Virus record (IMG/VR): IMGVR_UViG_3300048839_000302
Coordinates: 1-20,333 of that record
Origin: a virus
Reading direction: 5' to 3' (one strand)
Length of the DNA stretch: 20,333 nt
The notes under the pieces are model-generated. The model did no database searches. It saw nothing but the letters and a program-made list of their open reading frames with translations, and was not told the DNA's origin. Numbering within the stretch: the stretch's first letter is position 1; each line of letters opens with the position of its first letter. The position numbers were made by a program, and so were the translations under genes. Positions 7,683 through 20,333 of this stretch are shown piece after piece.

Positions 7683-8156
7683 CTACTGGGCAGCGGCGGG
7701 GTCTTGGCCCATGCACAGCCGGTACTCGGCTTCCCGCCGGGTTGCCAGGCCGCGTAACTTTTTGCCGCCCGCGTATACCCACCGCTTGATCTCAGCGCAC
7801 CCGCCTGCGTAATCCCCGGCGTTCCAGCGCTTGACCATGGTCGAGCCGCAGAACGCCTTGATCCCTATATTGTACGCCAGCGACAGGGCGGCGTCCAGCT
7901 CCCACTGATAGAGCGGCACGCGCACGCAGGCCGCGATTGCAGCCTTGCGCTCGCTCAGGTCGTCGAGCAGCAGCACCATCTCACGCTCGACTGTCGTGCG
8001 TTGCCCTGGCTTGACACCCTCGGTGCGGCCGGCGCCGATCGTCGGTACGCCCACGGCGTCGACATACGTAGTGTCGCGGTAGCCTTCGTGCAGCACGACC
8101 CCCACGAGCAGGGAGGCCGAGACGGCGAGTGCGGCGATGGCCGAGCGTCGAATCAT
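7683..8156 (-). CDS. SAR endolysin (T4-type/GH24 lysozyme), 157 aa
   Basis: The catalytic pattern E-8aa-D-5aa-T of GH24 phage lysozymes is visible as E24 (LHEGYRD), D33 (YVDAVG) and T39 (VPTIGAG), with the fold continuing through QWELDAALSLAYNIG, WNAGDYAGGC and the terminal GLATRREAEYRLCMG. The enzyme would cleave the peptidoglycan glycan chain. The N-terminus (MIRRSAIAALAVSASLLVGV) is a weakly hydrophobic, Ala/Gly/Ser-rich signal-anchor-release helix placed directly before E24, as in P21-type lysozymes. Such an enzyme is exported by Sec, stays tethered and inactive, and is released when the membrane depolarises. It usually works with a pinholin, and the holin-like gene directly upstream overlaps it by 4 bases. 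No cysteine lies in the SAR segment, so control is more R21-like than P1 Lyz-like (inference). Confidence 0.92.
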   Translation of the reverse strand: MIRRSAIAALAVSASLLVGVVLHEGYRDTTYVDAVGVPTIGAGRTEGVKPGQRTTVEREMVLLLDDLSERKAAIAACVRVPLYQWELDAALSLAYNIGIKAFCGSTMVKRWNAGDYAGGCAEIKRWVYAGGKKLRGLATRREAEYRLCMGQDPAAAQ

Positions 8157-8383
8157 TGGTCGTTGTCAGCGGCCCGCTTCTGGCGGGCAAGCTCCAGGTG
8201 CTGGTGCTTGTAGTACCACGTCAGGCCGAGCTGGCCGATCAGGCCGATCACGGCGACGAACATACCGATGATCACGCCGATCTCGTTAAGAGTCAGGCCG
8301 AAGTAGACGGTGCCGGCGGCTGCCGCCTGGGTCACGACGTTGGCCGTCTTGATGGCGAGTGTTCCGGTTGTTTGGTCATGCAT
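8153..8383 (-). CDS. Putative holin, 76 aa
   Basis: This small membrane protein has a glycine/alanine-rich weak hydrophobic segment (residues about 14-32, VVTQAAAAGTVYFGLTL), then a strong transmembrane helix (IGVIIGMFVAVIGLIGQLGL, about 35-54), then a basic, polar tail (YYKHQHLELARQKRAADN). That two-helix layout with a charged C-terminus matches class II holins. A weak, small-residue first helix is also a pinholin feature, where TM1 leaves the membrane before TM2 forms small holes. Its stop overlaps the SAR endolysin start (ATGA), the usual holin-endolysin pairing. The ribosome-binding site is AAGGGG about 8 bases before the ATG. The pinholin subtype is inference; a holin role is likely. Confidence 0.8.
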   Translation of the reverse strand: MHDQTTGTLAIKTANVVTQAAAAGTVYFGLTLNEIGVIIGMFVAVIGLIGQLGLTWYYKHQHLELARQKRAADNDQ

Positions 8384-8896: not shown

Positions 8897-9216
8897 ATCA
8901 AGTTGAGTTTCCGCGCCCGAGCGATCATCGCGTCGAGCAGTTGCTTGGACTGCACATTGGTAAGCTGCCCCGCCTCATAGCGGCGAATCGCATCACGCAG
9001 CGTGACCTTGGTGTTCTCCTCATCCGCTGCTTCCGCCTCGGCTGCTGCACGTGCGGCTTTCTCCGCCGCGATCATCGCATCGAAGGCATCCCGCACCTGA
9101 GTTTTCGTCGGCTCGGTCTTGAACGACAGAAACACGCTGCGCGTCTCGGCATCGTTGGCAATCCGCAGCGTCCATGTGCCGTTGCGCTCCTTGTACTTCT
9201 CGACGATCTTTGCCAT
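8893..9216 (-). CDS. Small coiled-coil phage protein downstream of the tail fibre, 107 aa
   Basis: This is a basic and highly charged protein. The first 35 residues are beta-prone (KYKERNGTWTLRIANDAETR). A long helix rich in Ala, Glu and Lys (AFDAMIAAEKAARAAAEAEA) is predicted to be a coiled coil. A second helical part (VTLRDAIRRYEAGQLTNVQSK) ends in ARARKLNLI. It is joined to the tail-fibre gene by a TAATG overlap and to the next gene by ATGA, so the three are translationally coupled. Small coiled-coil proteins following tail-fibre genes are often fibre chaperones or minor tail parts, which fits here, but the sequence itself only shows the coiled coil. Similar phage hypotheticals exist; I do not recognise a named family. 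Confidence 0.68.
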   Translation of the reverse strand: MAKIVEKYKERNGTWTLRIANDAETRSVFLSFKTEPTKTQVRDAFDAMIAAEKAARAAAEAEAADEENTKVTLRDAIRRYEAGQLTNVQSKQLLDAMIARARKLNLI

Positions 9217-11714
9217 TACACGACCCTCATCTTTGACAGCCAGCCGTTGTAGGTCGCCCCGCCGAAGGCTTGCACCTCAAGCTCCACCGCGCCCGTCTCT
9301 GTCGGCGTCAGGGTGACGCTGACCTCTTCCCAATCGTCAGGGCCGGTGTATGCGCCGTAGGTCATGTCGCTGTAGACGTCGTTGGCGATTCCGGCGAGCT
9401 GCCCGCCCTTGCACATCAGCCGCATCGTCAGCCCGGTGTTGTCCCGCGCCATGCGCACGCTGATCGTCTTTGAGACGTTTGCGGCGAGGGCGATGCCGCG
9501 TAGCTTCATGTCCAGCGGCCAGTCGGCGTTGCAGTCGGTGGTCGTCGGGGAGAACTTCCACGAGTAGGCCGTTGTCGCGTCGTAGGGCATCGTCGCGTCG
9601 GTAACGATCTGTCCGAAGTAACCGGCGATGCGGTGGTCGTCCGCCGTGCCATTGTAGTTGTGCAGGAAGCTGTGCCCGGTTGACCATGGGCTTGCCCCGC
9701 CAGCCAATCCAAGCGGGCTGGTGACATTGTAGAATTCGATATTGTTCAAATACTGTTCAGGCCAGCCGTTGTTTGTGAATGTAGCAGCAGCATGGCTGAA
9801 ATGTCCTGATTGAACAACTAGCCCCGCTTGCTGATTAGAACCAGCAAAGATTGATGTACCGGGCGGAACATTACCGCCTTCAAGGTATTTGATTACAGTT
9901 TTATTTCCGCCCATTTGAAATAACAAACATGTTGTAACGCAATCTCGGGATATGATGCTTTGGTATTCGCTCTTATCCGAGCCATACTGAATGAAAACCC
10001 CATAGTTGCACCCTTTTGAGATTGAACTGCCTCCTGAGACTAAAAATGGGGTGTTGCTGAACAATCCGAATCCTGTGCAATTCACGAATTGAAGATCATC
10101 GTAATAGAATGGGCCACCATTTCCGACTAAATATACTCCGTAGTTGAATCTGGCTACGGCAAGATTCTCAATGTTGATGAATGTTCTTACGTCAGTATAA
10201 AACCCAACACCGGCGCCATTCTGCCCATCCCACCATGTCTCTCCGCTTTGTGTGGTCATCGCTGTGCGATCCCATCCACCGGAGTAATTCAGCATTGATC
10301 CATACGTTCCTGAATCAGTTACCGCATTTGTCGTTGTCGTCGTTGCGGCAGCAGACGGCCCGATCTTCACCGCCTCCCGCTTGTACGTCGCCACCGTCTC
10401 GGTCGTCCCGACCTTGTGGCTGTAACCGACAGGCGTGGTCGCGTAGGCAGACGGTACATAATTCGTGTGGCAATCCAGCACCACCCGCGTCCCGTTGATC
10501 GACTGAATCCCGACGAATGTCTCGCCGGTCGTGTTCTTGCCGATGAGGGATGTGAGCGACAGGCTGTCAGCATCGGCGCTCGGCAGGCATCCGATGATCT
10601 CCCCGATCAGGAAGGTTTGCGCCCCATTGTCGGTATTCACCACCAGCGCACACGACTGGATGGATGCACCGAGGGCGGCGCTGGTATCCACCGTCACCGG
10701 CATCCAGTAGTTGAGAATCTTCGGACTCGGTACGCTGATGGTATCCACCGGCGTCGCACCCGCTGCGTCCGAGCAGAGCGTGATAGACAGGTCGGCATCG
10801 GCCATCACCGTGCCTGCAGTCTGCTTGATCCAGAACGATACCTGTTCATAAGCGGACAAGTCGAGCGTACCTGTCGGGAAGTACGCCGCCTTGCCGGTCG
10901 TGAAGCCTGCGGCAATGGCAATCGAAGCCGAACCGTAATGGTTCTTGTAGTCCGTGGTATTGACGGTCGCGGTGACGTTGGCGCTGGCCGTCCATGCGCC
11001 TTCCTGCGAGGAACACCCGGCAATGAGCTGCGTCTTGGCCGCAGCAAGTTCCACCACGGCGTTGTTGATCTTGCGGAATCCGCCCGTCGCGCCGCCGACA
11101 CCATTGCCAACCGAACCGTCTAGGCTGAATGTATCGGCGTTGATGTAGGTGATCTGCCAGATACCGTTGGCGTTGGTGTTGGTGGTGTGGCCGGTCAGGA
11201 GGATGTAGTCGTTGTCGGACAGGCCGTGGCTGGCCTTGGTAACAACGATGGGCGTGGCGTTGGTGGAGCTGGTGATCCCAAGACCGGTAAGTACCGGCGT
11301 TCCCGTCCATGTGGCATTGCCCACCAGCGTCGGCTCGGGGGAAGCCATGAGGCGAAAGACATCCCCCGGAACGATACGCACCGCCGTTGCGCCGGTGGTC
11401 ATCGTTTTCCACCTGCCGCCGATGTAATACTGTCGATCCACGCCCTGATTCGCCAGCGCGGTGCCGCCGGACAGCGCAGCGATGGTCAGCGAAGTTCCGC
11501 TTAACCATGCGGTGATCTTGTAGCAGGCATAGATCGAGGCGTTCCAGATCGTTAGGTAATGTCCGATCAGCGAACCGTCATTGGGGAAGCTGGCAGTGGC
11601 GGCGCTGAAGGTGGTCGAGGTAATGCGGCCATCCGTGCCGGAAGCGAGCAGCGCGAACGACGTGCCGCCGTAGTTGTCGTTGCCGCCTTCGTAGTCGATG
11701 AAGAGGGTGGTCAT
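9216..11714 (-). CDS. Tail fibre / tailspike protein with beta-helix and carbohydrate-binding-like modules, 832 aa
   Basis: The N-terminus (MTTLFIDYEGGNDNYGG, residues 1-17) is a typical start of phage fibre proteins that attach to the virion. Residues about 147-213 (from SSTNATPIVVTKASHGL to VGGATGGF) look like an FCCH-type beta module. About 230-375 resembles a beta-sandwich carbohydrate-binding module (LDLSAYEQVSFWIKQ). Residues about 510-650 are a run of short parallel strands (IENLAVARFNYGVYLVGNG, GCNYGVFIQYG), as in right-handed beta-helix tailspikes. A C-terminal sandwich follows from about 690 (ISVRMARDNTGLTMRLMCKG). No catalytic triad can be assigned, so enzymatic depolymerase activity is only possible. 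The gene would determine host recognition. The segment encoding the beta-helix is much more AT-rich than the rest. It follows the 143-aa gene by 7 bases with a weak ribosome-binding site. Confidence 0.82.
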   Translation of the reverse strand: MTTLFIDYEGGNDNYGGTSFALLASGTDGRITSTTFSAATASFPNDGSLIGHYLTIWNASIYACYKITAWLSGTSLTIAALSGGTALANQGVDRQYYIGGRWKTMTTGATAVRIVPGDVFRLMASPEPTLVGNATWTGTPVLTGLGITSSTNATPIVVTKASHGLSDNDYILLTGHTTNTNANGIWQITYINADTFSLDGSVGNGVGGATGGFRKINNAVVELAAAKTQLIAGCSSQEGAWTASANVTATVNTTDYKNHYGSASIAIAAGFTTGKAAYFPTGTLDLSAYEQVSFWIKQTAGTVMADADLSITLCSDAAGATPVDTISVPSPKILNYWMPVTVDTSAALGASIQSCALVVNTDNGAQTFLIGEIIGCLPSADADSLSLTSLIGKNTTGETFVGIQSINGTRVVLDCHTNYVPSAYATTPVGYSHKVGTTETVATYKREAVKIGPSAAATTTTTNAVTDSGTYGSMLNYSGGWDRTAMTTQSGETWWDGQNGAGVGFYTDVRTFINIENLAVARFNYGVYLVGNGGPFYYDDLQFVNCTGFGLFSNTPFLVSGGSSISKGCNYGVFIQYGSDKSEYQSIISRDCVTTCLLFQMGGNKTVIKYLEGGNVPPGTSIFAGSNQQAGLVVQSGHFSHAAATFTNNGWPEQYLNNIEFYNVTSPLGLAGGASPWSTGHSFLHNYNGTADDHRIAGYFGQIVTDATMPYDATTAYSWKFSPTTTDCNADWPLDMKLRGIALAANVSKTISVRMARDNTGLTMRLMCKGGQLAGIANDVYSDMTYGAYTGPDDWEEVSVTLTPTETGAVELEVQAFGGATYNGWLSKMRVV

Positions 11715-11721
11715 GGTCGCG

Positions 11722-12153
11722 TTAGTCTTCAGTTATCGCGCTCGCAGTTTTAATCACGGGCGTCACGCCAACCGCCATAGTCACATTCGGAGTCAATGTG
11801 CCACTATAGAGCACCTTGCCTGTGCCAGCCGCGTCTGTCCCGACAGCAAAATGCGTCAAAGCCGCCCCCGGCGACGCCGTGCATTCCGCGAACGGGATCG
11901 CCGATACCGGCGACACGCTGTTGTCCGTCACTGTCCAGCCGCTGCCCGAACGGGCCACAGCGACTCGGGCATAGCCGGTGTAAGCCGTCTCGTTGGTCGC
12001 CTGGTTGCCAGCTTCGCCGGGGTCGGACGTGTGTAGACTGACATACAGGTTGGTCAGCGGTGCCGACGCGGCGTTGTCCGCGATGTTGGCGATGGCTGTC
12101 GCATTGAAGATCAGCTTCAGCCAGTCGTTCTCGAAAGTGCTGCTTTTGCTCAT
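11722..12153 (-). CDS. Conserved tail-associated phage protein, 143 aa
   Basis: The N-terminus STFENDWLKLIFNATAI, followed by TNLYVSLHTSDPGE and YTGYARVAVARSG, is a pattern I recognise from many tailed phages, where it is annotated as phage tail fibre or hypothetical tail protein and is encoded just before a fibre gene. The first 30 residues form a helix and the rest is beta-rich with Gly/Thr/Val strands (GTGKVLYSGTLTPNVTM), suggesting a small structural or adaptor protein of the tail tip. An AGGAG site sits about 8 bases before the ATG, and the tail-fibre gene begins 7 bases after the stop. The exact function is not established; the position supports a link between the tail and the fibre. 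Confidence 0.78.
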   Translation of the reverse strand: MSKSSTFENDWLKLIFNATAIANIADNAASAPLTNLYVSLHTSDPGEAGNQATNETAYTGYARVAVARSGSGWTVTDNSVSPVSAIPFAECTASPGAALTHFAVGTDAAGTGKVLYSGTLTPNVTMAVGVTPVIKTASAITED

Positions 12154-12195: not shown

Positions 12196-12798
12196 TTAAC
12201 GCGTCGTTTCGCTCACCAGGCATACGTTGCCCTCGATCACAGTCGTTACTGTTCCGTCGCCAGCCACAAGCTCAAGGTCGTACACGCCGGACTCGAACGT
12301 GAACGCGGCTGTGTCGGTGGCGCTGATCAGCAGTGTGATCGTACCGGCGGCGCCGCCGAGCGTGATGCCGCCATCCTCGGTCGTCATCGAGTGCAGGGTG
12401 GCCGTCGACTCGACAGTCTCGCGTATCTGCATGCGCGCCGTGTAACCCGTCAAATTGACCGGTGGGTGGTACAGCACCTCCCCGCCGCTCGTGTACGTGC
12501 CGAACCGCGTAGTGTCAACATCGAGCCTCAGGCTGTTGGCGTCGACGTAGTAGCCGTAATACGCGGCACACGCCTGCCGAAGCTCATCCGCCGTGTGGTT
12601 CAACTGGTCCATGCCGGCGACACCGACGACCCACACAGGCCAATCGATGGTCAAGCCGTGACCAGTCGCCGTGACGACGGCCTGGCCGGACTTCGTGATA
12701 CCCGTAATGGCCTTCACCGTGAATTGCGGCTGGCCATACTTGAGCGTCAGCGCAAACGTCGAGCCTTGCTTGATCGTGATATCGTAGTCAGTGCTCAT
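12196..12798 (-). CDS. Tail/baseplate-associated protein with an FCCH-like insert, 200 aa
   Basis: The N-terminus (YDITIKQGSTFALTLKYG) and the C-terminal half (GYTARMQIRETVESTATLH, then TFESGVYDLELVAGDGTVT) match a family of small beta-rich phage proteins similar to the N-terminal domain of baseplate upper proteins (BppU-like). Inserted between them (about residues 30-108) is a module, ITKSGQAVVTATGHGL through DTTRFGTYTSGG, of the type annotated as a ubiquitin-activating E1 FCCH-like domain in phage tail proteins; the name reflects fold similarity, not ubiquitin chemistry. The gene lies 35 bases downstream of the giant gene with an AGGA site and precedes the tail-fibre genes. It probably forms part of the tail tip or fibre network. 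The BppU-like link is moderate confidence; the FCCH-like insert is somewhat firmer. Confidence 0.72.
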   Translation of the reverse strand: MSTDYDITIKQGSTFALTLKYGQPQFTVKAITGITKSGQAVVTATGHGLTIDWPVWVVGVAGMDQLNHTADELRQACAAYYGYYVDANSLRLDVDTTRFGTYTSGGEVLYHPPVNLTGYTARMQIRETVESTATLHSMTTEDGGITLGGAAGTITLLISATDTAAFTFESGVYDLELVAGDGTVTTVIEGNVCLVSETTR

Positions 12799-12833: not shown

Positions 12834-15800
12834 TCACTCTGTCGCTAGGCCCGCAGCGGCCTCGGACTGCCCCCGCAAGTACCTCGGCATCGTCAGCAGT
12901 GTCCGCTGATTAAGCGGCAGCCCCGCCAACGCTACTTGGCGCCGCAGACTTGCAGGCGATATGGCGATCGGCATGTCAGGGTGCGCTTGGTTCCACGCCA
13001 CAATAGCCTGGCCAACCTCGTTGGCGGCTGCACGATCGCCCTCGCGGATGGCAGCGACCATCTCCTTGGAGAACTGCGCGCGGATATCGTTGTAGAACGC
13101 CACTGACCGCCGGTCGATCGCGTCGCTCTCGTAGACTTGAGCGAGCGCCGCGGAACTGAAACCGAGCGATTGCCAGAATGCTTCCCACGAGCCGACGTCC
13201 ACCAGCTTGCGGCCGCCGGCGTCCGTGGCGTAGCCCTTCTCGAACTGCTCCCAGCCCTTAACCGCGTTCTTGGCGGCGAGCGGCAGGCCCTGCTTCGAGG
13301 CTTCGAGGAAGTTGCCTTTGCTCATGGCGTCGACGCCACTCACGATACCCGAGGCCATCCCGCCCACCGGGCCGAGGATCTCGTCCATGGCGCGACGATA
13401 GTCCACGTCGGCGGCACCGATCCGCGTGCCGGGGATCAGATTACCCGCGCCGACGCGGCTGGCGAAGTTGAGGTCTGTCAAGCTGTTGGCGACGCCGTGC
13501 ATCAGCACGCTCGAAAGATCAGCGCCGACGACTGCCTCGCTGGCTGACTTCAGGGTGTTGCGCATCCAGCGTTTTGAGTTGAAGGGCTCGCCGAACAGCC
13601 GCTGCGCGATGACGTCGATCAGGTCTTGCAGGTCTTCGGCGAACGGCAGGCCGTCGGTGCCCGCCATCAGCACCAGCATGCCCAGCATATACACCGCCGC
13701 CTTGGGGTTCTCCTTGGCGAGGAACGTCATCGTCTCCATCATGAAGATGGGGAACGACTTGAACACGAAGAACAGGCTGCCGACGCCCGAGTCGGCGAGT
13801 GCCGGGCGGTTGGCCTCGTCATAGCGGAACTGCGTGCCGAAGACCGTCTCTTGGGCCTGCTTGTGGGCGGCTTCATTGTCGAGGTTGTTCGACTTGGCCA
13901 CCTTGTAGGCAGCAATGAAGGCCGACACGCGGTTGTACTGTTCGGCCAGCCGGAACGGCGTCATCCAGAGCTTCACCGCCTCCTGCGTGCGCCCGCTGAG
14001 CGAGTATTCCTGCCCGCGCGAGAGGCCCATGAATTGATAGATCTCGGTGTCGAACAACGATCCATCCTGCGCGGCGATCTGCAACGCGTGGCGCAAGCCA
14101 TCCACCTCGTCAATGCCTTCGAGGGGCTTCTGGCCGAGCAGCGTCGGCAGGTCACGGACATCGCGGAAGTGCTTGCCGGCGAGGCGCATGCCTTCAAGCA
14201 GGCTCGCCGTGGCGCGGGCCGGGTTCGTGTGCTGCGTCAGCCACGGTAGCGTGATCATGGGCAATGACGACAGGTTCACGCCCGCCGCAGCGATCGAGCC
14301 ACCGAGGAAATAGACTGTCGCCAGCGCGCGAAGCTTGTTCGAGACCGTCGACCGCGACTCTGGCGACATGACGAAGCCCACCTTCTCGTCGGCGAGGTTT
14401 CGGAAGAACCCGGCATCGGGGCCGTCGAGCTTCCAGAGGTTGGTGTCAGCCTGCGTGTTGATGGCGACCGTACCATCCTTGGTGAAGGCAACGTCGACCT
14501 GCCGACCCTGTAGGGAGTCCTGGATGGCATCGCCCATCTCGGCATAAGCGATCTTGTTGGACATCGACACCGCGAACTCGGCGAGCACGCGCATGCCGTC
14601 CTGGCTGTAGCCGGCCACGTTCTGCCGGCGGAAGAGCCTGTTGCGGCGGGTGCTGTCGGCGGCGATCAGCGCCCGACCAAGGCGCTCCTTCTCGGGCTGC
14701 GTGAGGCTCACCCCGTGGCGTTGGGCGAGATCGAGGAACTGGCCGATCGAGATCGAGCCATCATAGTCGACCTTGTGCTTGAAGCCATAGTCGACGTGCA
14801 GCCCCTCGGGGCCGAAGATTTTCTCCAGCTCTGCCTTCGCCTCGGTGGCATTGGCCTCGCGCTCATACTGCTCGTAGTAGACGGTGATCTGCTTGCCGTC
14901 GGGTGCCGTGACGTAGGCGTGAACGAAGTGGTCGCCGTAGCGCCGCTCGGGGAAGTAGCTGTGCTTCTTGAGCTGCTCGACCTGCACCTTGCGATTCTCA
15001 AACCACTCGGCAAACTTGGCGTCGTCACTGAAGAATTTGCGGTACTTCACCTGCTCGGACGCGAACTCGGCGTCAAGCATCTTGCCGATCATGGCCCATG
15101 CCTGGTCGGCCATGGCGCGCTGCTCCGGCGTGAGCGGCTGCATCAGCGACTTGTACTCGGCGCTGTCGCGCGTGAGGCCGCCAACCGTCGCGGTGAGCAT
15201 GGCTTTGCTGACCGCTGCCTTATCAGACTTTGTGGCTCCTTTGACCCACGTCGACAGTTCCTTGGCGATGGCGCGCTCGAAGATCAGCGCTTTACGCTGG
15301 ATGAAGTGCGTCATGACGTCGAACACGTTGGCGTAGCCTTGTGAGGCTCTCGCGCGGTTGAGGCCACTGCCGATGTAGCCGTGGTACACGCGGCGCAGCG
15401 ACGCGCCGAGCGCCTTCACTTCGAAGCCCGCCTTCTCGGCGAGTCGATCGGTAAGGTCGCGCATGTCCGGCGTGTCAAGGCGCCCGGCAAGATGCGCGTT
15501 CACCTGCTCACGCTGAAGCTGGCCCTCGTTCATGCGCCGCGCGAGGTCAGTGACCGACTCCGTGGCAGCCCGTGAGTAAAACGCGCCAGTCGTATCGATC
15601 TGCCGTTTGACGGCGCTCTTCACAAGCTCGTCACGATATACCGGCGCGCTGCCAGTAAACACGCCGAGCGACTCCAAAGTCGGGTAAACCTCCGGCATCG
15701 CGCGTTGCGCCTGCGCAGCCCACTCCGCCGGCGTGAGTTGCCCGGCCGGCAGTCGTTTGTCTTCGATGAACGTACGCACAGCACGCTGCGTCGAAGAATA

Positions 15801-18800
15801 CTGCGGAGCAGGAGGAACTTCCACGCCCGCGACACCCGCGCTCGTTACCGGCAGATCGTTGCGGTTGAACACAACCGCAGCCCCCTGATTCCCTAGCGTG
15901 TTCTTGCGGCTCAGGTATCCGGCGTATCCCGCGCGGACTACCCCTAACTCGGCCGCGTTCGAGTCCTGGGTGCGGAATAACCCAAGCGCGTCAACATCCG
16001 CGTCGTATAGGTTGTTCAGCACCGCCAAATGCGGCACGCTACCCACTCCGGCTTCTGGGCGCACCCCGTTGCCGGTGTTGACGTAAAACGCCGTCCTGGC
16101 CCGGATGCGTGGGTCAGCAGTCGCCAGCCGTTCGCGCTCGGCCCCGGTAAGCCCGCGGCCAAAATAGTGCCCGCTCAACGTCGTCCGCGGCTCGGTCGAA
16201 AAATGCACCCCTTGGACTCCGTGTACTGCAAACGGCAGGCTGGTATTGACGCGGTCTTTCGGCGAAAGCCGTAAATCGAGCAGCCCTACAGAGAAGACGT
16301 TCCCGTCAAGCACCGTGTAGCCGTCGCGCTGTTTGGCTTCCTCGCCAACCACATCGCGGCTGTGTGCGGCGGGGGTAACGCTACCGTCTTGGTACACGTA
16401 CCCCTCGTTCGTCAACACGGACTCTTGCCCATATTTCTTGGCGAAACGAAGTGCCTCTGCCTCTGGCATTTTAACCATGAAGCTGTCGCCTTGATCCACC
16501 CCGAGGTACTTCCCCGGCCCCTTCAAGTAGGGCAGCTTCAGCGCCTGCAGTTCAGCTTCCAGCTTCGCGTTCGCCGCGACGTTCTCATGGGTGTCGTACG
16601 CACCTTGCGCCTCTTGCACCCCGGTGATGATCGCCCAGCCCGGCTTGCGAAGGAATGTCGCAGGGTCCTGCGCGAACTCGTCGAGGCTTGAGATTGCCCC
16701 CGCAGTAGTCTTGCTGAAAAGTGGCAGGCCCGCCATTGCTTCACCCTTGAGCGCGGGGGTTATGTCGAAGCCGGGTTGCACCAAGTCCGGCTCAGTTCCA
16801 TGCCGTACATCCGATGCCGGGTATTCCGTACCCTCCTCCAGCATCCGAAGCTCGACCTTTCTCCCGCCCAGCTTCTTCAGCAGATCATTCGCCACCTGTG
16901 GGACAATGCGGTCGTAGAAGGCAGCCATCCCCGTGTCGGAAATAGTGATGTCGTCTCCTTCAATCACACCAGACTGCTCGGGCGACTCAATGATGCTATC
17001 GCCCATTGCTTTACCAACGGCGTCGCTAACCATGTTTTCGCGTTCGTTTGTATCACTCACCAGACTGCCGTTCTTGCTGGCAACAAGGCGAATCTTTCCG
17101 TCTGCCTGTTTTGTCCATTCAATCCGGTCGACGACTTTGCGTAGGGCTTCGCGGTAACGCACAACTTGCTGCTCGCCGGTCGTCCAGGCAATCCGGTCGA
17201 AGCCGTTCTCGGCGGCGTAACGGATCATGCGCTTGAGCGCGAGGCCGACCCATGCTTTCGTGTCGGTGACGAAGGGGGCGAAGGGGACGCCTGAAGACGT
17301 GTCGTGGATTATACCCACCACGTCGTACGGCACTCCCTTTTCTTCAAGCCTCCGCGCGAGGAGATTGCCGTTGATGCTGCCCGCGGCCCAATTATTAATC
17401 AGGGTGTGGACGCTCTCCATTCCTTCTTCATCGGCGGCTTTCGCCCACTCGGACGCATTAAACGCTTCGCGCAGTTGTTTCGCTCGCTGCTCTACTCCCG
17501 CGTAGCGGAACCCCTCCTTCCGCCCCTTCTGCGCCCAGTCGCTCTGCAGTTCCTCGATGAAGAGGACGCGCTTTCCGTCGGCGTCGGTGCGCTCGTTGAA
17601 GCGGACGTGGGCCAGGATGTTGGGCTGGTCGAAGTGGGAGGAGCGGAACCCTGTCGCCGGCGCGGCGTCGGTCATTTCGTGCGCTTGAGCAATACGCTGC
17701 GCATGCGTAATTGCAGCGTCAGCAGTTTCGGCATCTGCGACAGCCACTTCTGAGCCGAACACCCGCCCGTTCGGCATGTCCGCCGTGACGTACCACCCCT
17801 CGTAATCGGCGCCAGTCGCTTCACCGAACCGCTTTGCTTGCCAATTTGTTAAGACCGCCTTCGTGGCTGGTGTTGCCCCAGGCAACCTCAACAGCAACTC
17901 GCGGTAGTTCTCGCCGCCGGGGAGTTGCCATTGGGAGAATTTGGTCGTGTCCTTCGTGCGCGTTCCCGCAGCGGCTTCCGCCTCCTCGCGCGTAGCGAAA
18001 GAGCGGCTGCGCGGATCAAACGCAATTTCCCAGTCTCCATTAAGGTCTTGCCGCACGACTCCACCTGGTATCGCAACCTCGCCCAACACCGTCTCCTCAA
18101 CCCGCACGCCATGCTCGCGCACGAACGCCTCGATGTCGGCGACGGAGACCTTGTCCGGCTGGAGGTCGAGCCACTCGGCGAGGCCGACGGCCTCCAACTC
18201 GGCGGCCTTGAACCGGCCTTCCTTCTGTCGGGCGGCCAGCCAGCTCTTCGCTTGGGCGGGGGCGATCGTGCCGTCCTTGCCGGCGACTTTCCTGATGTCG
18301 GCGACGGCTTCGGTGAGCGCCGAGTAGAATGCCTCTGCGGCGGCTTCGCGTCGGGCGGTCGACCGCATCACCTCCCGCTCGAACTCCCTGATCCCCGAGA
18401 TGTCACGCTTGGCATACTCCCCGCGTCGAATCATGGAGAACAGGTCTTCGTAGGACGTGAAGCCCAGGCCGTCAATGTAGTTCTGAATGCGCTCCATGAC
18501 GCGGGCGAGCTTCTGGAACACCTTGGCGATCATGCCTTGGGCTTCCAGCTCGCCGCGCCGCCAGAATTCAAAGCCGTAGGCGCGGGCCTCGGCGGGGATG
18601 GCGCGGATCTCGGACGTGATGTCGGTGCCGTTGGCGGCGTCGTAGGCTTCGGCCTTGGCGACGAGCATGCGGTGCAAACGCGAGCCACTGGCGAAAGCTT
18701 GACGGACGACGCGGCGCTCGGGACCGGTGAGCACGCGCTTGTCGAGGTAATGGAAGCCCTCGTGGGCAGCAACGGAACCGGCGTCGCTCGCTTGAAGCGA

Positions 18801-20333
18801 GACAGTGATCATGTCGCGCAGCTCGCCGAACTGGATCATGCCGGCGCCGCCGGCGACACGCGGAGCAGCTTCGACCACGAGGTCTTTCGGCGTGCCGACC
18901 ATTCCGGCGATCGTGTTCACGATCTCGTCGGTCTTGGCGATGACGGCTTCGTCGACGGCGGCGCGGCTTTGCTGGCGCTCATTTACCCCAATAAAAGCCT
19001 CAAGCTTTCGCAACAACCCCCGCCCCCCATCCGCGTCGTCGTTATAGCTACTTCCACCCTGGCGGATCATCTGGGCTACATACTTAGCTTCGTCTAATAG
19101 CCATCGCGAGGTGGGTTGGACTCCTACATCATCCGCCCGGCTATATAGCTCTGCCGGAGCCCTAGCCGCCTTACTCATCAACGTCTCCGGCATCGCAGCT
19201 TGCGCGGCGTCGGCCAACTTCTGCCAAAAAGTCTCGATCTCGACCTTCGGGATGACCCCGCGCAGAGCTTCAGACACAGCCTTGTCGAGCATTACCATAC
19301 CAGCAGCGTCGTCCTTCGCCATGACGGCGGCCTCGGCGCTGCGCTTCATCAGAGAAGCCGCGCGGCGGAGCTTGTTCGGGGTGGCCACGACGCCTTGGGC
19401 TGTGAGGTTGGCCAACGCCGTGTCGACTGCCTGCGTGTAGGCATTGACGAAGTTCTCGCGGCGCTCGGCGCTGCCGAACTGACGCCCGCGGAACTTCGGC
19501 GTCGTCTGCACTGGCGGTGCTTCGACCTTCGGCGCGGCGCGCTCATAAGCCCGTACAGCAGCCTGTTCCTGCACCGTGAGCGGTTCACCCTGCTGTTGCT
19601 TCAGCAGCGCTACTTGGACTTTGACGCTTGGTGCGCGCCCTTCTTGGCCTTCCGCTGCACCGAATACGCGATCGCCAACGCTTGCGGCAGCGGCTTGCCC
19701 GCGTGCCGCTCCTTCGCCACGTTGGCGCTGAACGCCTCCTTGGACTTCGACTTGACCAGGGGCATAGCCTGTCTCCTTCTCTGCAATGCGAAGAAGCTCG
19801 GCTTCCTTCGCGGTGATGATCGGCGCGGCCGGCGCCGGAGCGGGCTGCTCTCCGATGATGGTCGGCTCAGCCATCCGGGTCTTCTGCACCGGCGCGGCCA
19901 CAGGTTCGACGGGGGCGGCCCCCGGCACCTCGGTCGGCGTCTGGTTGATGATTATCTGGTTGCGCTGCTCCGGCGTGAGTGGCTGCGTGCCGAACTGTTC
20001 GTTGATGAAGGCTTGCTTGTAGGCTTCGTACTCCGGACGGGCGGTCTTGACCTCGGCGGCCGTGATCGGGCCAGTAACGCCTTCCTCGCGGTTGGCTCGG
20101 ATGAACTCGGACAACCCCATGGGCTCAGGCACGGCGGGGCCGGTGTGGGCTTCCGCAACAGGCGGGGCCTCGGGAGCAGGCGGCTCACCTTTGGTCGTTG
20201 GCTTCTGCCCGCGAGCAAGCTGCATGCCGCCACCGAGCAAACCACCGGTGAGCATGCCCAGGGCCGCCGCTTGGCCAACGCCCATGCCGAGTTCTTCGCC
20301 AAGGGCGATGTTCTGCGCGATCTGCTCCTGCGC
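12834..20333 (-). CDS. Giant polyvalent virion-type protein, C-terminal 2499 aa (5' partial at right edge)
   Basis: The frame is open to the window edge. The first ATG in view is at 20285, but 16 more codons read through before it, so the gene probably starts outside. Residues below count from that ATG. Residues 6-22 are a Gly-rich hydrophobic stretch, then Pro/Ala linkers. At 508-512 lies HEGFH (HExxH zincin) with a candidate third ligand in EARAYGFEFW near 566, a probable metallopeptidase. About 785-1150 is a conserved phage domain (GGENYRELLLRLPG, SHFDQPNILAHVRF, EELQSDW, RIAWTTGEQQVVRY). About 1212-1300 is weakly DUF3293-like, and about 1355-1475 (FGRGLTGAERERL to VVFNRNDLPV) resembles ADP-ribosyltransferase-like polyvalent domains. 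The remainder is helical, with hydrophobic segments near 1990-2015 and 2172-2232 (FKSFPIFMMETM, GTDGLPFAEDL), resembling LPD38. Such proteins are typically packaged and injected with phage DNA. Confidence 0.82.
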   Translation of the reverse strand, partial: AQEQIAQNIALGEELGMGVGQAAALGMLTGGLLGGGMQLARGQKPTTKGEPPAPEAPPVAEAHTGPAVPEPMGLSEFIRANREEGVTGPITAAEVKTARPEYEAYKQAFINEQFGTQPLTPEQRNQIIINQTPTEVPGAAPVEPVAAPVQKTRMAEPTIIGEQPAPAPAAPIITAKEAELLRIAEKETGYAPGQVEVQGGVQRQRGEGAARGQAAAASVGDRVFGAAEGQEGRAPSVKVQVALLKQQQGEPLTVQEQAAVRAYERAAPKVEAPPVQTTPKFRGRQFGSAERRENFVNAYTQAVDTALANLTAQGVVATPNKLRRAASLMKRSAEAAVMAKDDAAGMVMLDKAVSEALRGVIPKVEIETFWQKLADAAQAAMPETLMSKAARAPAELYSRADDVGVQPTSRWLLDEAKYVAQMIRQGGSSYNDDADGGRGLLRKLEAFIGVNERQQSRAAVDEAVIAKTDEIVNTIAGMVGTPKDLVVEAAPRVAGGAGMIQFGELRDMITVSLQASDAGSVAAHEGFHYLDKRVLTGPERRVVRQAFASGSRLHRMLVAKAEAYDAANGTDITSEIRAIPAEARAYGFEFWRRGELEAQGMIAKVFQKLARVMERIQNYIDGLGFTSYEDLFSMIRRGEYAKRDISGIREFEREVMRSTARREAAAEAFYSALTEAVADIRKVAGKDGTIAPAQAKSWLAARQKEGRFKAAELEAVGLAEWLDLQPDKVSVADIEAFVREHGVRVEETVLGEVAIPGGVVRQDLNGDWEIAFDPRSRSFATREEAEAAAGTRTKDTTKFSQWQLPGGENYRELLLRLPGATPATKAVLTNWQAKRFGEATGADYEGWYVTADMPNGRVFGSEVAVADAETADAAITHAQRIAQAHEMTDAAPATGFRSSHFDQPNILAHVRFNERTDADGKRVLFIEELQSDWAQKGRKEGFRYAGVEQRAKQLREAFNASEWAKAADEEGMESVHTLINNWAAGSINGNLLARRLEEKGVPYDVVGIIHDTSSGVPFAPFVTDTKAWVGLALKRMIRYAAENGFDRIAWTTGEQQVVRYREALRKVVDRIEWTKQADGKIRLVASKNGSLVSDTNERENMVSDAVGKAMGDSIIESPEQSGVIEGDDITISDTGMAAFYDRIVPQVANDLLKKLGGRKVELRMLEEGTEYPASDVRHGTEPDLVQPGFDITPALKGEAMAGLPLFSKTTAGAISSLDEFAQDPATFLRKPGWAIITGVQEAQGAYDTHENVAANAKLEAELQALKLPYLKGPGKYLGVDQGDSFMVKMPEAEALRFAKKYGQESVLTNEGYVYQDGSVTPAAHSRDVVGEEAKQRDGYTVLDGNVFSVGLLDLRLSPKDRVNTSLPFAVHGVQGVHFSTEPRTTLSGHYFGRGLTGAERERLATADPRIRARTAFYVNTGNGVRPEAGVGSVPHLAVLNNLYDADVDALGLFRTQDSNAAELGVVRAGYAGYLSRKNTLGNQGAAVVFNRNDLPVTSAGVAGVEVPPAPQYSSTQRAVRTFIEDKRLPAGQLTPAEWAAQAQRAMPEVYPTLESLGVFTGSAPVYRDELVKSAVKRQIDTTGAFYSRAATESVTDLARRMNEGQLQREQVNAHLAGRLDTPDMRDLTDRLAEKAGFEVKALGASLRRVYHGYIGSGLNRARASQGYANVFDVMTHFIQRKALIFERAIAKELSTWVKGATKSDKAAVSKAMLTATVGGLTRDSAEYKSLMQPLTPEQRAMADQAWAMIGKMLDAEFASEQVKYRKFFSDDAKFAEWFENRKVQVEQLKKHSYFPERRYGDHFVHAYVTAPDGKQITVYYEQYEREANATEAKAELEKIFGPEGLHVDYGFKHKVDYDGSISIGQFLDLAQRHGVSLTQPEKERLGRALIAADSTRRNRLFRRQNVAGYSQDGMRVLAEFAVSMSNKIAYAEMGDAIQDSLQGRQVDVAFTKDGTVAINTQADTNLWKLDGPDAGFFRNLADEKVGFVMSPESRSTVSNKLRALATVYFLGGSIAAAGVNLSSLPMITLPWLTQHTNPARATASLLEGMRLAGKHFRDVRDLPTLLGQKPLEGIDEVDGLRHALQIAAQDGSLFDTEIYQFMGLSRGQEYSLSGRTQEAVKLWMTPFRLAEQYNRVSAFIAAYKVAKSNNLDNEAAHKQAQETVFGTQFRYDEANRPALADSGVGSLFFVFKSFPIFMMETMTFLAKENPKAAVYMLGMLVLMAGTDGLPFAEDLQDLIDVIAQRLFGEPFNSKRWMRNTLKSASEAVVGADLSSVLMHGVANSLTDLNFASRVGAGNLIPGTRIGAADVDYRRAMDEILGPVGGMASGIVSGVDAMSKGNFLEASKQGLPLAAKNAVKGWEQFEKGYATDAGGRKLVDVGSWEAFWQSLGFSSAALAQVYESDAIDRRSVAFYNDIRAQFSKEMVAAIREGDRAAANEVGQAIVAWNQAHPDMPIAISPASLRRQVALAGLPLNQRTLLTMPRYLRGQSEAAAGLATE

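What the first reader, a model, noticed from the sequence alone, without database searches (positions are those of the whole stretch)
12834..20333. Giant multi-domain polyvalent protein with a zincin motif, cut by the window edge
One open frame covers 7.5 kb and carries in order a Gly-rich hydrophobic segment, an HExxH metallopeptidase site (residues 508-512 from the ATG at 20285), a conserved unnamed domain (about 785-1150), a DUF3293-like stretch, an ART-like stretch and an LPD38-like helical C-terminus. Polyvalent proteins (described by Iyer, Burroughs and Aravind) combine effector domains believed to be injected with phage DNA to counter host defences. The order here, and especially the conserved central domain whose activity is unknown to me, makes this the best candidate for an unusual system. 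A membrane-penetrating C-terminus could help deliver the N-terminal effectors.
Basis: partly seen in the sequence, partly recalled or inferred. Interest (0 to 1): 0.72.

Follow-up and report, generated by a model that had tools for sequence, protein, structure and literature searches.

The report
Giant phage protein with swappable enzymes
A bacterial virus gene encodes a giant protein that is probably packed in the virus particle and injected into the host, and it carries a widespread unnamed domain plus an inserted two-domain cassette, one half of which is related to viral enzymes that destroy the cell's methyl-donor SAM.

Summary
One frame (12834-20333, minus strand, 2499 aa to the edge) encodes most of a phage polyvalent protein. 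A relative (L003) shows about 251 more N-terminal residues, so the ATG at 20285 is not the start. Order: an N-terminal domain related to the N4 virion RNA polymerase N-terminus; a zincin-like domain (HEGFH; HEGxH and two downstream Glu invariant in 12 relatives); an unnamed module (665-1206); DUF3293 (1231-1316); an ART-like domain (1373-1492); a helical PLxRFG tail (1774-2489). LPD38 and ART-PolyVal are not matched.

New here: (1) The module is named in neither Pfam nor NCBIfam, models confidently, has no PDB fold match, and has at least 443 IMG/VR relatives; those sampled lie in giant polyvalent proteins. (2) DUF3293 is related to phage SAM lyases (profile P=4.6e-6 against control best 0.054; Foldseek's most probable hit is T3 SAM lyase), but the window copy has lost the catalytic Glu that 10 of 12 phage copies keep. 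(3) DUF3293 plus ART-like form a ~380-aa in-frame cassette (1209-1588), absent at the exact junction in relatives. Best reading: virion-borne, ejected effector carrier. New variant of a known kind; enzymatic function untested.

The parts
12834..20333 (-). Giant polyvalent protein gene, 2499 aa to the window edge; true start about 251 codons beyond the edge
   Evidence: L003 ORF 9248-11695 supplies the missing N-terminus
20214..20333 (-). C-terminal end of the N-terminal (ejection-type) domain, residues 1-40; rest lies outside the window (L003 protein residues 39-291)
   Evidence: profile hits; related to N4 vRNAP residues 210-432 by hhalign P 8.4e-7
18396..18959 (-). Zincin-like domain, residues 459-646
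   Evidence: 12 relatives, HEGxH, E575 and E582 invariant; helical around both motifs in the model; no PDB sequence match
18750..18764 (-). HEGFH motif, residues 524-528
18588..18590 (-). E582, invariant Glu in the downstream helix, candidate third zinc ligand (E575 is an alternative)
   Evidence: helix 580-592 in the model
16716..18341 (-). Unnamed central module (EEIQSDW-type module), residues 665-1206, ending in the conserved GLPLF
   Evidence: 443 relatives in IMG/VR, 37 in genomes; conserved residues; no Pfam/NCBIfam/PDB match; BFVD matches at E<=1e-3 all phage proteins, many giant
17511..17636 (-). Core motif of the module, residues 900-941 (HFDxPNILAHVRFNERTDxxGxxVLFIEExQSDWxQxGRxxG)
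   Evidence: invariant H900, N905, H909, R911, E928, Q930, D932 in 64 sequences
15570..16709 (-). In-frame cassette, residues 1209-1588, absent at the same junction in L002, L011, L097, L167 (L161 carries other sequence there)
16386..16643 (-). DUF3293 domain, residues 1231-1316, related to phage SAM lyases; catalytic Glu not conserved in this copy (QGDS instead of ExS)
   Evidence: Pfam; model b-a-b-b-a-b; Foldseek 8bb1_E prob 0.93; hhalign and controls; residue alignment
15858..16217 (-). ART-like domain, residues 1373-1492 (H1377, Y1417, N1441, YD1443-1444, E1462 conserved)
   Evidence: 54 loci in IMG/VR, conservation, weak fold hit to ParT ADP-ribosylating toxin
12867..15014 (-). Helical C-terminal PLxRFG / tail-700 domain, residues 1774-2489, with hydrophobic stretches
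   Evidence: NCBIfam NF032893 E 3e-103; PHROG and tblastn hits to F116-like phages; hydropathy
12196..12798 (-). Next gene of the late operon (phrog_1084; tail-fibre assembly-like)
11722..12153 (-). Gp80-like podophage fibre/head protein gene, same operon
7683..8156 (-). Endolysin (Phage_lysozyme), preceded by a holin at 8153-8383; end of the late operon

Best explanation
The gene encodes a virion-packaged, ejected polyvalent protein: a delivery chassis (N-terminal domain of the N4-vRNAP type, zincin-like domain, helical PLxRFG tail) into which effector modules are slotted. Proposed course: the protein is made late, packaged, and expelled with or ahead of the DNA; the N-terminal domain helps it cross the envelope; the zincin may cut the chain; the freed modules act on the host before phage genes are expressed. 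The cargo here is the unnamed EIQSDW module and a probably gained cassette of a SAM-lyase-type DUF3293 domain and an ART-like domain. Shown: the gene, the domain order, modularity, presence/absence of the cassette at one exact junction, conservation of motifs, and the DUF3293-SAM lyase relationship at profile and fold level. Supported by relatives: presence in virions. Inferred: ejection, proteolysis, enzymatic action of every module. In this copy the SAM-lyase-type domain probably no longer cleaves SAM because its catalytic Glu is replaced; in most relatives the residue is kept and SAM depletion at entry, which would blunt SAM-dependent Type I restriction or BREX, is the most likely role.
For: Domain hits and order. 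Central module in giants with known polyvalent domains including ART-PolyVal, LPD38, InPase, PBECR1, Acb1. Late structural neighbourhood in window and L003. Homologous giant in JC1 virions, 51 unique peptides (PMC9144972); DUF3293-bearing giant of Flavobacterium elemo phages deposited as 'structural protein'. N-terminal domain versus N4 vRNAP residues 210-432, P 8.4e-7, other N4 segments 0.1-0.57. Zincin invariants. Cassette: alignments to L011, L097 and L167 stop at residue 1208 and resume at 1585-1590 with at most about 10 residues between; L002 joins PLFSK|AATES seamlessly. SAM lyase: Pfam S-AdoMet_lyase overlaps DUF3293 in two members, best E 0.0016; Foldseek most probable hit T3 SAM lyase 0.93, second 7ock 0.66; hhalign P 4.6e-6 against best of 60 shuffled controls 0.054 and reversed 0.13; G-x-Y, E-x-S/T and Q-[DEN] columns align; 10 of 12 distinct phage copies keep Glu.
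Against: No virion proteomics for this phage or a close relative. Zincin fold not confirmed: no PDB match by sequence or structure, no coordinates to check the third ligand. The Foldseek E-value for SAM lyase is 0.13 with TM 0.46 on the target. The ART-like assignment rests on conservation and a hit of probability 0.35. In the window DUF3293 the Glu-x-Ser motif is QGDS. The central module could be structural rather than catalytic.
Confidence: 0.7

Rival explanations
1. It is chiefly an internal virion or ejectosome structural protein: the modules are degenerate or act as scaffold, building the head interior or DNA channel, with no effector chemistry in the host.
For: The N-terminal domain resembles a likely membrane-spanning ejection domain (PMC12633501); the tail is long and helical with hydrophobic stretches; the DUF3293 copy lacks its catalytic Glu; phage P1 Dar proteins also have roles in head assembly (PMC12810830, listed).
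Against: Polar, enzyme-type residues of the central module are invariant in 64 sequences, HEGxH and two Glu in 12, and cargo modules are exchanged as cassettes, which fits effectors better than scaffold.
Confidence: 0.2
2. It is a late intracellular or lysis-related protein, not injected: the PHROG endolysin label on the central region points to cell-wall or host-shutdown work at the end of infection.
For: phrog_7348 'endolysin' matches 900-1061 (E 5.7e-6); relatives in Nostoc and Microcystis phages are deposited as 'lysin'; the lysis genes lie at the end of the same operon.
Against: The phrog_7348 profile is 2564 long and the match covers the unnamed module, not a lytic domain; no lytic Pfam domain is found in P0001; the homologous JC1 giant is in virions.
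Confidence: 0.07
3. (Rival to one part only.) The DUF3293 to SAM lyase link is a shared ferredoxin-like/PII-like fold, not a shared ligand or activity.
For: Foldseek also lists PII-like DarA and PstA and aspartate kinase domains; the Tyr of SAM lyases is missing in the bacterial stand-alone proteins and the Glu in the window copy.
Against: Profile similarity is far above shuffled and reversed controls, and the columns that align are those reported as conserved in SAM lyases (Gly56, Glu69, Gln104 of Svi3-3; PMC7877911).
Confidence: 0.35

Closest known systems
Phage polyvalent proteins (Iyer, Burroughs, Anand, de Souza, Aravind 2017, PMC5512222)
   Same: Giant size, late/structural context, zincin-like HExxH domain, ART-type domain, several unrelated modules in one chain, shared modules with bona fide members
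   Different: Main cargo module is absent from Pfam (which holds the LPD and PolyVal models hit in related giants); no match to MPTase-PolyVal, ART-PolyVal or LPD38; carries a DUF3293/SAM-lyase-type domain, and DUF3293 is not mentioned in the main text of that paper
N4 virion RNA polymerase gp50 (PMC12633501)
   Same: Homologous N-terminal domain (P 8e-7) and a similar general layout: N-terminal ejection domain, enzyme cargo, HExxH domain, large helical C-terminus
   Different: No RNA polymerase; zincin lies before the cargo; zincin and helical C-terminus show no detectable sequence relation to N4 C1 and C2
F116-like and Bcep22-like giant 'DarB-like antirestriction' proteins
   Same: Same N-terminal domain (43-45% to F116-like) and PLxRFG tail (29% to F116-like); JC1 gp69 is virion-associated
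   Different: Different middle: F116 carries a methyltransferase-annotated protein and ART-type modules; here the EIQSDW module and the DUF3293-ART-like cassette
Phage SAM lyases (T3 gp0.3, Svi3-3; PMC7877911)
   Same: Predicted fold order, aligned Gly, Tyr and Gln positions, profile-level homology of DUF3293
   Different: T3 SAMase is a small protein and the first one made on infection (PMC8406200); here the domain is fused inside a virion-type giant, and this copy lacks the catalytic Glu

Membership tests
Phage polyvalent protein | Several domains with unrelated predicted activities in one large polypeptide | tested here: met
   zincin-like, EIQSDW module, SAM-lyase-type, ART-like in one frame
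Phage polyvalent protein | Encoded among virion structural genes | tested here: met
   window and L003 neighbours
Phage polyvalent protein | Packaged and injected with the DNA | not testable with these tools
   only a homologous giant in JC1 virions
Zincin-like metallopeptidase | HExxH in a helix and a conserved Glu in a following helix | tested here: met
Zincin-like metallopeptidase | Zincin fold and zinc coordination by His, His, Glu | tested here: inconclusive
   no structural or sequence match in PDB; MPTase-PolyVal not matched; coordinates not available
LPD38 (PF18857) | Match to the Pfam profile | tested here: not met
   same library finds it in 6 of 13 related giants
PLxRFG domain protein (NF032893) | Score above the curated cut-off | tested here: met
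   346 bits against cut-off 100
ART-PolyVal (PF18760) | Match to the Pfam profile | tested here: not met
   positive in 6 of 13 related giants
ADP-ribosyltransferase superfamily | ART fold with H / Y / E-or-D active site | tested here: inconclusive
   H1377, Y1417, E1462 conserved; ParT hits at probability 0.20-0.35 only; no PDB sequence match
DUF3293 (PF11697) | Score above gathering cut-off | tested here: met
   29.3 bits against 25
SAM lyase family | Ferredoxin-like b-a-b-b-a-b fold and profile homology | tested here: met
SAM lyase family | Catalytic Glu (Glu69 in Svi3-3) | tested here: not met
   QGDS in the window; present in 10 of 12 distinct phage copies
SAM lyase family | Conversion of SAM to MTA and homoserine lactone | not testable with these tools
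   needs an assay

The most novel reading that the evidence does not exclude
The EIQSDW module is a new enzyme family with a new fold that tailed phages carry in injected giant proteins across many host phyla, and DUF3293 domains in such giants are virion-delivered SAM (or SAM-AMP) lyases that disarm SAM-dependent defences before any phage gene is expressed.
Probability: 0.35. Interest if true: 0.75.

Novelty: new variant of a known kind. Interest (0 to 1): 0.55.

Why it matters
It gives a widespread unnamed part of phage giant proteins a defined boundary, a conserved core and evidence of no known fold, so it becomes a concrete target for structure and assay. It also turns DUF3293, found as a mostly small, apparently stand-alone frame in 16 of 185 sampled genomes of one bacterial class, into a testable SAM-lyase-type family, and suggests that phages may deliver SAM-depleting activity in the particle rather than as an early gene product.

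Tried and rejected
GNAT reading of the central module: suggested by the strand/helix order by eye, dropped because Foldseek finds no PDB match (best probability 0.44, MutL). PHROG 'endolysin' label: profile of a 2564-aa giant, no lytic Pfam domain here. A universal F-S-[R/K] cleavage motif at module junctions: tested in 83 giants, the four tripeptides checked are at most 1.8 times above composition and their permutations reach similar values, so not claimed; what remains is the conserved end GxPLF[S/Q] of the module (74 of 160 module hits followed by PLF within 110 aa). Zincin versus N4 C1, tail versus N4 C2: no signal. PADLOC: no hits. PDB sequence searches with whole protein, zincin, DUF3293 and ART profiles: nothing relevant. 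An alignment-based scan for DUF3293 failed for lack of a conserved stretch and was redone with two sequences. ART hits overlapping DUF3293 in L061 and L155 were an artefact of misplaced rows in A4 and vanished when these were removed. CEN-CEN architectures may partly be one domain split by an insertion; true tandem copies were seen in the Dolichospermum phage.

Full report
Observation. The frame 12834-20333 (-) is open for 2499 codons to the window edge. The window is a 20.3-kb IMG/VR virus record. Contig L003 carries the same protein (83-96% identity over the shared parts) with an ORF that starts 251 residues earlier, MAKFVNPFGEAPSGF..., so the ATG at 20285 is internal. HEGFH is at residue 524 counted from the window edge; HExxH would be expected 0.027 times by chance.

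Context. Downstream on the same strand are a tail-fibre-assembly-like gene, a Gp80-like fibre/head gene, a long tail-like gene, a holin and a lysozyme. Upstream, in L003, come a head-closure-like protein, a fibre gene and virion structural proteins. The gene therefore sits in a late structural operon. The opposite-strand genes at the other end include a DUF927 primase/helicase.

Chassis. The N-terminal ~250 residues (L003) match F116-like giants at about 41-45% and the PHROG of N4 virion RNA polymerase; an alignment of 22 such domains aligns with N4 gp50 residues 210-432 at P 8.4e-7, while other N4 segments give 0.1-0.57. The N-terminal domain of N4 gp50 is described as likely membrane-spanning (PMC12633501). 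The C-terminal 1774-2489 is the NCBIfam PLxRFG tail, also in F116-like phages. A 'DarB-like' giant of Burkholderia phage JC1 was found in virions with 51 unique peptides (PMC9144972); the window tail matches the PHROG of DarB-like antirestriction proteins (phrog_10089, E 4e-31), and I take JC1 gp69 as a member of that group by its published description. These ends recur around different middles: among fetched giants the architectures N-ZIN-ART, N-CEN, ZIN-TAIL, ZIN-CEN-TAIL and CEN-TAIL all occur.

Zincin-like domain. Twelve relatives share HEGxH, E575 and E582 without exception. In the AlphaFold2 model (mean pLDDT 82.6) HEGFH lies in helix 518-534 and E582 in helix 580-592. Pfam MPTase-PolyVal does not match and nothing in the PDB does. 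I take it as a zincin-like peptidase by motif, not by fold. Iyer et al. propose such domains process the polyprotein before packaging, in the head or after injection (PMC5512222).

Central module. Residues 665-1206 form one unit, bounded by a YSxL start and a GxPLF end. A six-peptide scan finds 443 relatives in IMG/VR, a lower bound, and 37 in bacterial genome records from many phyla. Over about 64 sequences H900, N905, H909, R911, E928, Q930, D932, P1020, A1040 and G1053 are invariant and R915, S931, W933, W1028 and Y1060 nearly so; all are kept in the window. No Pfam or NCBIfam family covers it in 72 members. Much of the core models above pLDDT 90 yet there is no PDB match (0 at E<=0.001), while 26 predicted viral structures match, all phage proteins and many of them giants. 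The search used a two-domain model, so a domain-level match could have been missed. Thirteen giants with the module carry LPD38 (6), ART-PolyVal (6), InPase (5), LPD1 (3), helicases, GGDEF, PBECR1, ddrB-ParB and one Acb1. It is thus a widespread polyvalent-protein domain with enzyme-type conservation and no recognised fold. Its activity is unknown; that it is an enzyme acting on a host target is inference.

Cassette. L002, 80% identical over the tail, lacks residues 1209-1588 and reads PLFSK|AATES, the two window junctions joined in frame. In the far more distant L011, L097 and L167 (32-44%) the alignment also stops at 1208 and resumes at 1585-1590 with at most about 10 residues between; L161 has other sequence there. 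The simplest history is gain of a ~380-aa cassette in the window lineage at an existing module junction; no tree was built. The pair DUF3293 then ART-like recurs side by side in L099 and in a Nostoc phage giant.

DUF3293 is related to SAM lyases. Two of 38 relatives hit Pfam S-AdoMet_lyase over the same stretch as DUF3293 (best E 0.0016; window 0.083). The model of 1205-1600 (mean pLDDT 76.6) shows b-a-b-b-a-b there. Foldseek's most probable PDB match is T3 SAM lyase (8bb1_E, 0.93; E 0.13), then 7ock_K (0.66), with PII-like proteins further down. A profile of 19 DUF3293 sequences (13 bacterial, 6 phage) against five T3-type SAM lyases gives hhalign P 4.6e-6; 60 column-shuffled controls reach 0.054 at best, the reversed one 0.13, unrelated alignments 0.49 and 0.62. 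The aligned columns are Gly (Gly56 of Svi3-3), Tyr in phage copies (Tyr58), Glu-x-Ser/Thr (Glu69-x-Ser71) and Gln (Gln104), the residues reported as conserved and ligand-binding (PMC7877911). 'DUF3293' is absent from the text of the paper library, so no published link was found there; papers outside the library were not searched. In the window the motif is QGDS: the Glu is replaced or displaced, as in the Nostoc phage (DGPS), whereas 10 of 12 distinct phage copies keep it. Svi3-3 E69Q loses activity 4500-fold but still binds SAM. So this copy is probably not an active lyase; a SAM-binding role is possible. An ejected, active relative would deplete SAM at entry and could blunt SAM-dependent Type I restriction or BREX; phage SAM lyases are reported to neutralise restriction-modification and BREX (PMC12255297).

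ART-like domain. Residues 1373-1492 match 54 loci in IMG/VR. H1377, Y1417, N1441, Y1443, D1444, E1462 and G1472 are conserved. The fold search lists ParT, an ADP-ribosylating toxin, at probability 0.20-0.35. ART-PolyVal does not match. Plausible, not established.

Verdict. It is a new variant of a known kind, the phage polyvalent protein. The parts worth following are the unnamed module and the DUF3293-SAM lyase relationship. No function of this protein has been tested.

Noticed in passing
L198-L213 (bacterial genomes): Stand-alone DUF3293 frames in 16 of 185 sampled genomes of one class show the same Glu-x-Ser and Gln columns as phage SAM lyases, though not the Tyr; a candidate function for this Pfam family.
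   Followed up: partly
window residues 1202-1208 (16710-16730) and relatives: The central module ends in a conserved GxPLF(S/Q/A) followed by unrelated sequence in each protein; a conserved module terminus at which the cassette was exchanged.
   Followed up: partly
one of 13 giants in A6: An anti-CBASS Acb1 domain (E 7.9e-7) lies in the same giant protein as the central module, i.e. a known anti-defence enzyme as polyvalent cargo.
   Followed up: no
L155:3047-14131: Flavobacterium elemo phages encode a 3.7-kaa deposited 'structural protein' with a Glu-bearing DUF3293/SAM-lyase-type domain; a cultivated phage for testing.
   Followed up: partly
L156 (NC_003298, T3 gene 0.3): T3 SAM lyase is annotated 'SAM-dependent methyltransferase' in this record, as in several relatives; likely misannotation.
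   Followed up: no
L007:4745-16106 (F116): In F116 the N-terminal domain and the PLxRFG tail lie in two adjacent genes (p59, p60), whereas in H66 the matches to both ends carry the same product name; possible frame break or split gene in the F116 record.
   Followed up: no
L006 (Limnohabitans phage DC33): Record is classed as Inoviridae although it is 39 kb and encodes a 3125-aa polyvalent-type protein; the taxonomy looks wrong.
   Followed up: no
window 9216-11714 (-): 832-aa gene with sub-threshold carbohydrate-binding (CBM_4_9) and tail-protein matches; possible receptor-binding protein.
   Followed up: no
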